The notes below the pieces were generated by a model, which did not search any database, was not told the origin of the DNA, and saw only the letters and a program-made list of their open reading frames with translations. Of a stretch of DNA of 31,954 nt, positions 513-14,241 are shown one piece after another. The translations under genes and the position numbers were made by a program. Each line of letters begins with the position of its first letter. Position 1 is the stretch's first letter. Source of the stretch: Ophryocystis elektroscirrha (Eukaryota > Apicomplexa > Conoidasida > Neogregarinorida > Ophryocystidae); NCBI GenBank assembly GCA_030141585.1, contig JAQIFP010000030.1, forward strand, positions 41,387 to 73,340, written 5' to 3'.

Positions 513-1847
513 TTAATCATAGTTGTTTTTTTGAAAAGGCGTTCGTCGGTGTAATCCAGAAGTTTTAATATTTGGGAAATTATCTAGCCTGTGATGTTGT
601 ATGTTAGAGGATATTTCAGCCGTTTCAGTTGGCTCACTTTGACGATCTTCTATAGTTGGGTAATTCGCTTGAAAAGGAGAGTTTTTTATAACAAGGACAT
701 CATTATTTAGAACGTAAGGATTTACACGGTAATAGTCTACAAAACATAGAAAATGAACAAAAATCCATGGTTTTTCCATGCAACAATATACGTTTCTATA
801 TATAAATTATATTTTATTTATATAAATTGTACATACATATATATATATATATATATATAAATTAAATGAGTAGCCCTGGTGCACAAAAATATTTGTATAC
901 ATGAATATGTTAATACATACCGTTATACAGTTCTTGGGAATCAGAATTAGATTTGCTAGATTTTGGCTTGACTACTGGTGTAAGTTCAGCGTCTCCAAAG
1001 TAGTCTTCCTCTACATGTGATAAATGGCTGTTGTTTCCATCTTCATCTTCGTCTTGGCTTTTTCTGTATTTTACGTGCATGTCTTTCACTTGTTGCTCAT
1101 ATTTAAGCATTTGTTGCTTCGTTTTGTGTTGGTAATAGACCTTCCATGCTATGGTTACTGAAACTATTGTTATGATCATTATAAAAACAGAAACAATAAA
1201 GCCTGTAATTCCAGCTTTGGAGAATATTTGTCTCATTATTTTCATAAACATGCTTAAGTTTTTGTCAAAGTCAATAGTTTGAGGTAAAACGCATTGAATA
1301 GGTAGACCACTCCATGAACCATTCAAACACACCACTTCAAACTCGGTATTTTCCGTTAATATTGGCGTAGGGAAATAACCTTCATTACAAGTTAATACCC
1401 TTCGAGCGTAATGGTGCGTTGAGACACTGTACAACAACATACCAGAATTATTTAATGATTTCGAGCCATAACTATAAGCTTCCTTATCTTGTATTGTGTG
1501 AGGCTTGCAGCTTTCTACATTAATGGTAAATAAGCAAATTTATCTCACTTCTACAGTCTAACTCAATAGGTGTCCATGCTCGATCATGACAGTAGATTCG
1601 CGCGGGACTATACCCTTTGACTGCTGTATACCCAGGTGCACATTCTAATAACTTTGTAGACCTTTTGTCTATAATTTCTGTTGTAATAATATAACCTTCT
1701 ACATCTACTTCATCGGAGAAAAGTGTCCATATTGAGTCGACGCAAGGTCTTTCACAAGCCGTATTATGATCTGAAATCCAACGCCCGTTATCGCATCTTA
1801 ATACATCAGGGGATGTTCCCTGTATCAGCAAATACCCTGGTGAACAC
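513..1847 (-). other. giant protein exons 23-25: sushi modules, transmembrane helix, cytoplasmic tail
   Basis: Exon 23 (1549-1847) carries sushi/CCP-type repeats (KCSPGYLL, then LRCDNGRW; LLECAPGYTAV, then IYCHDRAW). Exon 24 (921-1514) adds another (LTCNEGYFPT, then VVCLNGSW) and then the transmembrane segment ITGFIVSVFIMIITIVSVTI followed by AWKVYY. The tail continues with a heptad-like basic stretch, an acidic patch (DEDEDG), EEDYFGD, and a final exon 25 (513-736) ending at the TAA at 513. The topology is therefore type I, with the modules extracellular or lumenal. The Tyr and acidic tail motifs are of the kind used for sorting to secretory organelles in apicomplexans; no specific signal can be assigned. 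Confidence 0.82.
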
Positions 1848-12700: not shown

Positions 12701-14241
12701 TGGGAGAACCTAAATGATTCTATAAATTTATATTTGATTCTTACTTCTACATTTCTTGACCTGATACGGACTCCTTTACCACAAGTTTCCGAACACGGTC
12801 CCCAATCCTTCCATGGACCAACTTGACACTCAGTCGCTAAATACAAATTTAATTATTTTTACAATTAAATTACAGCATTCAGGCATTACGCATCGCTTCA
12901 TTTGTGTTGTAGGAGGACAATTAAAAGCTCCATTGTCTGGGTATTGCTAATAATATAAAAAAAAAAAAAAAAAGAATACCAAAATTTGACGGGATCTGCT
13001 CATTTGACCTATGCCGCACTCTTGAGAGCAAGGTGACCAAGGACCCCAATCCGAAACTTTACAAGGTACGGCTGAGTATATATACACATATTCTTTTTCT
13101 TACGACATGGGACACCTTTATTGCACCCTTGCTGAGTTTCTACCAATGGAGGACATTTTTTTCCGTTCGCAGTTCCTCTTCTGGTTATTTGACGTTTTCG
13201 AGTTATTATTCCTCCTTCTCCTGTACGGTCACACCGTACATTACACTCACTCCACGGTCCCCATGCACTCACTTGACAATCATTTTCTAATCATAAAAAA
13301 ATATTATATGAGACTTCAAAAATGACAAAAGCTCAAGAATAAGTATACCACTAAATAGTTATATTTATACACATACATTAATTTATATTAATTACTTTTA
13401 GTATAATATTACTATACATTTGTGTAAAAAAAAAAACCTTTTTTTTTTTTATTATATAAACAGTTAATTAATAAGACTTATTAATATTATAAAATATATA
13501 TAATATATATCTATAAATATTTTATGTACATTTATACTCAAACGTATACACACATAAGGAGATATATCAATATAAATGGTAAAGTTATTACACTAAATAA
13601 AAGAATTATTTAAATTTGTATTTTTAATGCGTACCCCAGCAATCACCACCATCATACTGACATTCGGGTACATTACACGCAGGTTCACACATAGAGTTTC
13701 CAATAAACCATACGGCACATCCAGGGCTACACTCTGTAAGTATATTAATTAGTATTTTTTTTTTTTTTTTTTTTTTTTCAGTGTATGCATAATATAGAAT
13801 GTAATATAATTATGAATTAGGATTTGAATAAATATACTTACGACTACAAAGTTTACAGGATTCTGGACATGCGTCGGAAACTCGAAGCTGTCTGTAAAAT
13901 TCAGGGATAGTGCTGATGTCGCGATTATTTTCAGCAGCAACATCTTTGAGCATTCTTTCGCACCCCAAAGAAGAAATTAAATTTGCCGAAAGCGTCCGGC
14001 AGCTAGTCCCCATTTTTTCCACGAGCGGATTATCTTTGCATATATAACCTGCAGCGTTTCGAGGCTTCAAACTTTCCATGGAAGAAGGAGTACGTCTGTT
14101 CTGTAATTGACGAATTTGCCTCCTTATTTTTAGCTCTCGTTCCTTTCCAAGGTTTGAGTAAAATAAATACATTATAGCGCTTATAAAAAATATCCAAAAA
14201 GCTATGCGACGTTTTAATACATATGTATATGTCATTTCCAT
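513..14241 (-). CDS. giant multi-domain surface/secretory adhesin-like protein (14 TSP1, about 10 ShK-like, 4 LNR, sushi, TM), 25 exons
   Basis: Hand-spliced exons in transcript order: 13842-14241, 13635-13733, 13104-13286, 12980-13071, 12874-12946, 12745-12836, 12433-12709, 11771-11938, 11532-11702, 11160-11333, 10953-11129, 10827-10918, 10164-10581, 9973-10131, 9355-9522, 9110-9219, 9001-9073, 6138-8966, 5812-5997, 5427-5779, 5191-5346, 2020-5153, 1549-1847, 921-1514, 513-736. All 24 junctions are GT/AG and phase-compatible. They sum to 10,701 nt, or 3,566 residues plus stop. The start ATG has an in-frame TAA 7 codons upstream. Domains: hydrophobic segment (residues about 12-28), ShK-like, LNR, TSP1 array (about 167-975), ShK-like/LNR region, Cys-rich region, sushi modules, TM helix (about 3395-3418), cytoplasmic tail. 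TSP1 proteins of apicomplexans (MIC2/TRAP, MIC15, Cryptosporidium TSPs) act in adhesion, invasion or rhoptry discharge. A similar role here is inference. The weakest junction is the GTACCT donor at 5426. Confidence 0.85.
2020..5153 (-). other. giant protein exon 22: 1,044-residue region with diverged Cys-rich helical repeats and LNR 4
   Basis: The largest exon. It completes an ShK-like module (to SDICPITCESC), then runs about 660 residues without a family I recognise. The region is rich in predicted helix and in spaced cysteines. A recurring pattern is a Cys followed 5-9 residues later by another Cys and then a helix: FCFEKLPDQKNSCYQQAL, VCTKADNHYCQQTLL, YCMKDSNQKYCGDYL and VCELTLDRTCSHN. Each is preceded by a CxxxC or CC element (DPCTTPC, CEPIC, ECC, DCC). 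A low-complexity Asn/Glu insert sits near the middle. LNR 4 lies at about residues 2849-2880 (DGQCDWECYNKDC). The exon ends in phase 2 inside the next sushi module. Confidence 0.75.
5191..5997 (-). other. giant protein exons 19-21: ShK-like module, DCGG segment, sushi-like module
   Basis: Exon 19 (5812-5997) is one ShK-like module (CVDSQVLAKMKTNC to CKASCGKC). Exon 20 (5427-5779) opens with a short disulfide segment containing NGDEKGVDCGGSCRPC, a motif common in multi-domain extracellular proteins. A sushi/CCP-like module follows (VFCRTGYEKM, then VTCLDGYF, then LVC). Exon 21 (5191-5346) starts another ShK-like module that is completed by the first codons of exon 22. The 37-nt intron between them (5154-5190) splits that module in phase 0. 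Confidence 0.72.
6138..8966 (-). other. giant protein exon 18: ShK-like and LNR modules around an unassigned central domain
   Basis: This 2,829-nt exon encodes residues about 976-1918. It starts with an ShK-like module (CQDKDADLNVHG to DACPMSCKVC) and an LNR (about 1040-1072, ending SFDLGDC). A roughly 310-residue region of unassigned fold follows (about 1075-1385). It includes a segment GFSDPVAYFNGVYERG and later YLWIDN and PEVYFTW, reminiscent of an NGxY-type module seen in some protist extracellular proteins; that match is from memory and is weak. After it come ShK-like copies starting near 1390, 1514, 1610, 1708, 1791 and 1853, with an LNR near 1450-1482 (ending NYDGGDC). Each ShK-like copy ends in a C-P-x-(S/T)-C-x-x-C type motif. 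The exon leaves in phase 1 at a GTAAGAAAT donor; the open frame runs a few codons further to a stop at 6124. Confidence 0.8.
9590..9960. repeat. TA-rich microsatellite block in intron 14/15
   Basis: Imperfect (TA)n with interspersed ACATATACT/TTAACAATATA units fills most of the 450-nt intron between 9523 and 9972. Open frames in both directions here encode only Tyr/Ile/Met-rich low complexity and are not genes. Confidence 0.75.
10689..10739. repeat. 22-bp-arm perfect inverted repeat inside intron 12/13
   Basis: Arms 10689-10710 and 10718-10739 are perfect reverse complements around a 7-nt loop. The arms include an internal AAGCAA/TTGCTT core, so this is not simply (TA)n self-complementarity. 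It lies in a 245-nt intron of the giant gene and would form a strong hairpin in pre-mRNA. No coding sequence or target-site duplication was recognised. Confidence 0.7.
13635..14241 (-). other. giant protein exons 1-2: signal anchor/peptide, ShK-like module 1, LNR 1
   Basis: Exon 1 opens with a basic stretch (VLKRR) followed by a hydrophobic run (FWIFFISAIMYLFY) that fits a signal peptide or signal anchor. After a charged linker comes a module with cysteines spaced as in its later copies: CKDNPLVEKMG, then SLGCERML, then DACPESCKLC. Exon 2 is a complete Lin-12/Notch repeat with the canonical six cysteines and Asp/Asn calcium ligands (WFIGNSMCEPACN, then YDGGDC). Both exons end in phase 1, the usual phase for shuffled extracellular modules. 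Confidence 0.8.

What the first reader, a model, noticed from the sequence alone, without database searches (positions are those of the whole stretch)
513..14241. Predicted 3,566-residue, 25-exon apicomplexan surface protein with 14 TSP1, about 10 ShK-like, 4 LNR and sushi modules
Seen: 24 introns join without a single phase conflict or internal stop, from a start with an upstream in-frame stop to a terminal tail exon. Known: TSP1 proteins of apicomplexans (MIC2/TRAP, MIC15, Cryptosporidium TSPs) serve adhesion, gliding or rhoptry discharge. Inference: this is an invasion or attachment protein on micronemes or the surface. I do not recall this order of modules (N-terminal ShK and LNR, long TSP1 array, ShK/LNR region, Cys-rich helical region, sushi, TM) in a described protein. 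It may be a distant MIC15/CRMP-complex relative or something new.
Basis: partly seen in the sequence, partly recalled or inferred. Interest (0 to 1): 0.85.

Follow-up and report, generated by a model that had tools for sequence, protein, structure and literature searches.

The report
TRAP-C2/TSP2-type giant apicomplexan surface protein
The gene is real and was read correctly, but it is a further member of an already described family of giant parasite surface proteins (TRAP-C2/TSP2) whose function is still unknown.

Summary
Observation confirmed. The minus strand of 513-14241 holds a 25-exon gene with 24 GT-AG introns in consistent phase, summing to 3,561 codons plus stop (reader: 3,566). Exons 1-24 match an unnamed 3,889-residue protein, P0001, in one colinear chain, straight through the suspected break between exons 18 and 19. 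Modules: 14 TSP1 by eye (13 with WxxWxxC), 4 LNR, about 10 ShK-like repeats (sub-threshold in Pfam), sushi repeats, one C-terminal membrane span, a tail.

The idea that this order of modules is undescribed fails. Relatives are TRAP-C2 or TSP1/LNR proteins of Cryptosporidium and homologues in Eimeria and Besnoitia; papers describe the architecture as CpTSP2/TRAP-C2, TGME49_223480 and PgTSP2. MIC15, CRMP and TRAP/MIC2 membership is not supported.

Function is inferred: a secreted multivalent adhesin or contact sensor. Searches showed no functional study. Exon 22 is modelled, weakly, with a ferredoxin-like, perhaps SEA-like, domain after the last LNR. New, divergent member of a known but uncharacterised kind.

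The parts
513..14241 (-). Whole gene: 25 exons, 24 introns, 3,561 codons plus stop
13842..14241 (-). Exon 1: start, hydrophobic stretch (residues 13-31), ShK-like repeat 1
   Evidence: matches P0001 at E 6e-29
13635..13733 (-). Exon 2: LNR 1
   Evidence: PF00066 E 8.7e-11
9001..13286 (-). Exons 3-17: array of 14 TSP1 modules, four of them split by a phase-0 intron (exons 4/5, 6/7, 12/13, 16/17)
   Evidence: exon 10 module weak (E 0.67)
6138..8966 (-). Exon 18: seven ShK-like repeats (by eye) and two LNR, with a sushi-like and a beta-rich stretch between
   Evidence: two PF00066 stretches; homologues
8391..8676 (-). Exon 18 residues 97-191: sushi-like fold, weak
5812..5997 (-). Exon 19: ShK-like repeat 9
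   Evidence: by eye; P0001 E 4e-20; no Pfam match
5427..5764 (-). Exon 20: Cys/Gly-rich motif and weak sushi-like stretch
   Evidence: Sushi_2 E 0.095; P0001 E 1e-27
2020..5346 (-). Exons 21-22: ShK-like repeat 10 split by an intron, then family-specific helical Cys-rich region with LNR 4
   Evidence: PF00066 E 3e-6; P0001 E 6.5e-176 for exon 22
2964..3050 (-). LNR 4 in exon 22
   Evidence: C41:44350-44436
2220..2603 (-). Exon 22 residues 851-978: predicted ferredoxin-like, possibly SEA-like, domain
1549..1847 (-). Exon 23: sushi repeats
   Evidence: PF00084 E 5.4e-6, two stretches
921..1514 (-). Exon 24: weak sushi, membrane span (about 1132-1218), first part of the tail
513..736 (-). Exon 25: rest of the cytoplasmic tail, stop; no match in the homologues

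Best explanation
Shown here: an intact-looking 25-exon gene encodes a member of the TRAP-C2/TSP2 family (CpTSP2 = cgd5_3420, TGME49_223480, PgTSP2), with one colinear order of modules: N-terminal hydrophobic signal, ShK-like, LNR, 14 TSP1, ShK/LNR region, helical Cys-rich region, sushi repeats, one membrane span, tail. Inferred: it is a secreted type I membrane protein that stands far off the parasite surface. The TSP1 array, probably C-mannosylated as shown for CpTSP2, makes multivalent contacts with host glycans or matrix, and the Cys-rich modules stiffen the stalk. It acts in attachment or in contact sensing before invasion, not as a TRAP-type motor-linked glider. Confidence by step: family identity about 0.97; secreted surface or microneme location about 0.75; adhesion or sensing role about 0.55.
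For:: 12 proteins at E <= 1e-3 with the exon 18 stretch: four Cryptosporidium (two named TRAP-C2, one TSP1/LNR, one uncharacterised), two Eimeria, one Besnoitia, four unnamed long relatives, and P0012, a putative peptidase sharing LNR; colinear chains of 24 of 25 exons in P0001, P0002, P0004, P0005, P0006; 23 in P0003; 21 in each of the four Cryptosporidium proteins; 15 in P0007; no paralogue of exons 22 or 18 in the 8.0-Mb genome beyond short LNR/ShK cross-hits; exon 22 groups with P0001 and P0002 (100/100). (PMC10034466, passages): CpTSP2 peptides in sporozoites and C-mannosylated TSP1 tryptophans. (PMC9218915, passages): TGME49_223480 fitness score -3.9; rhomboid-like proteases at two places in the genome.
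Against: No location or function was tested. TGME49_223480 has no proteomic support in tachyzoites, bradyzoites or sporozoites and its transcript fits enteric stages, which sits badly with a tachyzoite fitness score of -3.9. cgd5_3420 is placed at the inner membrane complex or plasma membrane, while four related shorter proteins are placed in micronemes. Dpy19 (C-mannosylation) was not found in the own genome, though that search had no positive control. The tail exon matches no homologue. P0012, which is not a member, also chains 14 of 25 exons at the permissive cut-off, so the chain count alone is a weak measure. No named gregarine or chromerid protein appeared.
Confidence: 0.6

Rival explanations
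1. It is a structural protein of the parasite coat or oocyst/cyst wall, not an invasion adhesin: the many disulphide modules cross-link or stiffen a layer.
For: One table gives cgd5_3420 peptide evidence only from the oocyst wall; Cys-rich modules throughout; enteric-stage transcription of TGME49_223480.
Against: One membrane span and a tail of about 145 residues; CpTSP2 peptides in sporozoites; fitness score -3.9 in a tachyzoite screen.
Confidence: 0.2
2. It works like MIC15 and the CRMP complex: a contact sensor that licenses rhoptry discharge, without being a member of those families.
For: TSP1 proteins MIC15 and TgTSP1 act in that complex; wide conservation and strongly negative fitness score.
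Against: TGME49_223480 was not among the complex members named in the passages I saw; different modules.
Confidence: 0.15
3. It protects the parasite from complement through its sushi modules, as PMC13095730 suggests for the related Cryptosporidium proteins.
For: Sushi repeats in exon 23; suggestion in PMC13095730 (passages).
Against: Sushi is a small, divergent part of the protein; the family is reported also in chromerids and in a gregarine of lobsters, where vertebrate complement plays no part (inference).
Confidence: 0.04
4. The exons belong to two or more genes and the single protein is an artefact of the model.
For: No cDNA was available; my automatic model differed (23 exons).
Against: P0001 carries exons 1-24 in one frame on a 12,460-base contig, which leaves at most about 0.8 kb for introns.
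Confidence: 0.02

Closest known systems
CpTSP2 / TRAP-C2 (cgd5_3420 and its Cryptosporidium relatives)
   Same: ShK-like and LNR at the N-terminus, TSP1 array, ShK/LNR region, helical region, sushi-like C-terminus, membrane span; 21 of 25 exons colinear in each of four Cryptosporidium proteins
   Different: 3,697-3,884 residues in the four proteins; exons 6, 17, 20 and 25 unmatched in the chain; identity 21-26% in exons 18 and 22. The C. parvum sequence itself was not compared.
TGME49_223480, sushi domain-containing protein of T. gondii (homologues here: Besnoitia P0003, Eimeria P0005 and P0006)
   Same: TSP1, Notch, Sushi and TM architecture; 23-24 of 25 exons colinear in the homologues
   Different: 4,752 residues and 16 TSP1 in the T. 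gondii model; the T. gondii sequence itself was not compared
PgTSP2 of Porospora gigantea
   Same: Notch, TSP1, Sushi, one membrane span (passages)
   Different: About 2,800 residues with a short basic tail; here 3,561 and a tail of about 145; sequence not compared
MIC15/RDF1
   Same: TSP1 modules, Cys-rich repeats, one membrane span
   Different: 3 TSP1 and an H-type lectin; no LNR or sushi in the listing

Membership tests
TRAP-C2/TSP2 family | LNR before and after a TSP1 array | tested here: met
   LNR in exon 2, twice in exon 18, once in exon 22, TSP1 between exons 2 and 18
TRAP-C2/TSP2 family | Colinear homology over the length of named members | tested here: met
   21-24 of 25 exons in each of P0002-P0006 and P0008-P0011, 24 in P0001, 15 in P0007; non-member P0012 also 14; strong matches of exons 18 and 22
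TRAP-C2/TSP2 family | Sushi repeats before a C-terminal membrane span | tested here: met
   PF00084 E 5.4e-6 in exon 23; hydrophobic helix in exon 24
TRAP-C2/TSP2 family | Reciprocal best hit, single copy | tested here: inconclusive
MIC15/RDF1 | Three TSP1 with an H-type lectin domain | tested here: not met
   14 TSP1; no H-lectin among the families listed at E <= 1 for 20 of 25 exons; definition
CRMP | Nine membrane spans | tested here: not met
   Hydrophobic stretches only in exons 1 and 24, exons examined one by one; definition
TRAP/MIC2 | von Willebrand A domain | tested here: not met
   None in the 20 scanned exons; none found in own genome (control rang in 11 of 14, all prokaryotes). Some TRAP-like proteins lack it.
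TRAP/MIC2 | Tryptophan near the end of the tail (recalled as a hallmark) | tested here: not met
   No W in exon 25
ShK domain PF01549 | Score over the curated cut-off | tested here: not met
   14.8-15.8 bits against 20.9 in 3 of 8 repeats, no match in 5; the Cys spacing is ShK-like by eye
SEA domain | SEA fold | tested here: inconclusive

The most novel reading that the evidence does not exclude
The last LNR repeat, the helical stretch after it and the predicted SEA-like domain of exon 22 form a Notch-like regulatory unit: force on the bound TSP1 array opens it and allows cleavage of the ectodomain, so that the protein is a mechanical contact sensor of the parasite and not only glue.
Probability: 0.06. 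Interest if true: 0.8.

Novelty: new member of a known kind. Interest (0 to 1): 0.3.

Why it matters
The family runs from Cryptosporidium to coccidia and is reported in gregarines and chromerids; its T. gondii member has a strongly negative fitness score, yet searches showed no functional study. In this genome it is one of two TSP1-bearing genes detected (a lower bound), so it may be a core TSP1 protein of the phylum and not a lineage-specific adhesin. The window adds a divergent member from a lineage outside the Cryptosporidium and Eimeria/Besnoitia groups of the exon 22 tree, useful for finding the conserved surface.

Tried and rejected
A purely automatic gene model gave 23 exons with several weak donor sites; replaced by hand inspection.

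The 18S rRNA search (RF01960) did not complete. HSP90 did not name the organism: nearest rows unnamed, query branch long; 45 of the 120 listed homologues went into that tree.

Own-genome searches for sushi, Dpy19 and AMA-1 returned nothing and rang in none of 14 controls; sushi is missed although exon 23 holds it, so these negatives say nothing.

A second family search from P0001 residues 2319-3433 gave only P0001 itself and the 2,182-residue P0133, not the named members.

Fold searches: no Foldseek match at E <= 0.001 for either model; both models have mean pLDDT 56. Avidin-like and transposase-like rows were taken as common arrangements.

Full report
What was checked. The finding claims a 25-exon gene of 3,566 residues on 513-14241. 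I listed the minus-strand reading frames, ran a small gene finder of my own (23 exons, start at 14172) and inspected doubtful junctions by eye. The corrected model has 25 exons and 24 GT-AG introns of 30-494 nt; 12 of 24 introns are 30-47 nt. Phases agree throughout, no exon holds an internal stop, and the sum is 10,686 nt, or 3,561 residues plus stop. The start at 14241 follows an in-frame stop.

Is it more than chance? Yes. Each exon translation was compared on its own with proteins from the database search. In P0001, 24 of 25 exons form one colinear chain; only the tail exon has no match. At 18 of 23 junctions the spacing in P0001 equals the model's, counting a split codon as one residue; the other five are off by 2, 1, 5, 1 and 2 residues. 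P0001 is a 3,889-residue protein on a 12,460-base contig, which leaves at most about 0.8 kb for introns, so in that relative the protein is close to one frame.

Family. The search with the exon 18 stretch gave 12 proteins: four Cryptosporidium (two named TRAP-C2 extracellular protein, one TSP1/LNR repeat protein, one uncharacterised), two Eimeria, one Besnoitia, four unnamed long relatives, and P0012, a putative peptidase that shares LNR. Colinear chains: 24 of 25 exons in P0001, P0002, P0004, P0005 and P0006; 23 in P0003; 21 in each of the four Cryptosporidium proteins; 15 in P0007; and 14 in P0012, where short repeats chain loosely at the permissive cut-off. So the chain count alone is a weak measure; the strong evidence is the long matches of exons 18 and 22. 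No paralogue of these two exons exists in the 8.0-Mb genome beyond short LNR/ShK cross-hits. In a tree of exon 22 the window groups with P0001 and P0002 (100/100), apart from Cryptosporidium and from the group of Eimeria, Besnoitia, P0004 and P0007, with long branches and a midpoint root.

Literature, passages unless stated. PMC2575384: Notch;TSP_1;Notch;Sushi in T. gondii, Notch;TSP_1;Notch in C. parvum. PMC9250747: CpTSP2 and PgTSP2, large Notch, TSP1 and Sushi proteins, with orthologues in G. niphandrodes, chromerids and coccidia. PMC9218915: TGME49_223480 with 16 TSP1, Sushi, Notch, TM, 4,752 residues, fitness score -3.9, no proteomic evidence, enteric-stage transcription. PMC13095730: cgd5_3420, 3,869 residues, similar to TGME49_223480 at 1e-176, placed at inner membrane complex or plasma membrane. 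PMC10034466 (passages, section 4, outline with abstract): CpTSP2 in the middle quartiles of the sporozoite proteome, with C-mannosylated TSP1 tryptophans. PMC12362873 measures its mRNA methylation only. Hence the order of modules is in print. Searches of an open-licence library, which lacks most subscription papers, showed no functional study.

Not MIC15, CRMP or TRAP. MIC15 is reported with three TSP1 and an H-type lectin, CRMPs with nine spans. The von Willebrand A domain of TRAP/MIC2 was seen neither in the scanned exons nor in the genome, and exon 25 has no tryptophan; that this tryptophan is a TRAP hallmark is recalled.

How it most likely works. Shown: the modules and the family. Inferred: secretion, type I topology, surface exposure, a sugar-dressed TSP1 array as multivalent ligand-binding rod, Cys-rich modules as stiff spacers, a role in attachment or contact sensing. 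The exon 22 model (mean pLDDT 56.0, pTM 0.54) has two confident helical blocks and a ferredoxin-like domain at residues 851-978; its best second-look matches include EpCAM, Trop2 and IA-2 ectodomains, tied with unrelated folds. That these are SEA-like, and that Notch packs LNR repeats on such a domain, is recalled; it gives the novel case at low probability.

Verdict. Real gene, correctly read; known family; new, divergent member; function open.

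Noticed in passing
L012:2379-4421 (G000:C2:136378-138420): The only other TSP1-bearing place detected: an RCC1-like stretch (PF25390 E 2.1e-12, under its cut-off), one weak TSP1 (E 9.5e-7), then a membrane span and short tail. Whether it corresponds to the single-TSP1 protein of the CRMP complex was not tested.
   Followed up: partly
window 14735-15106 (-): CKS cyclin-dependent kinase regulatory subunit (PF01111 E 6.7e-31).
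   Followed up: no
window 24243-24641 (+): Alveolin / inner membrane complex protein exon (PF12314 E 4.2e-13), which supports an alveolate genome. The other 8 of 10 neighbouring frames scanned had no Pfam match at E <= 0.01.
   Followed up: no
G000:C15:7829-9148, C71:94105-95624, C86:73966-74046: Other LNR-bearing places in the genome.
   Followed up: no
window 513-14241, introns: 11 of 24 introns are only 30-37 nt; the host lineage is unnamed.
   Followed up: no
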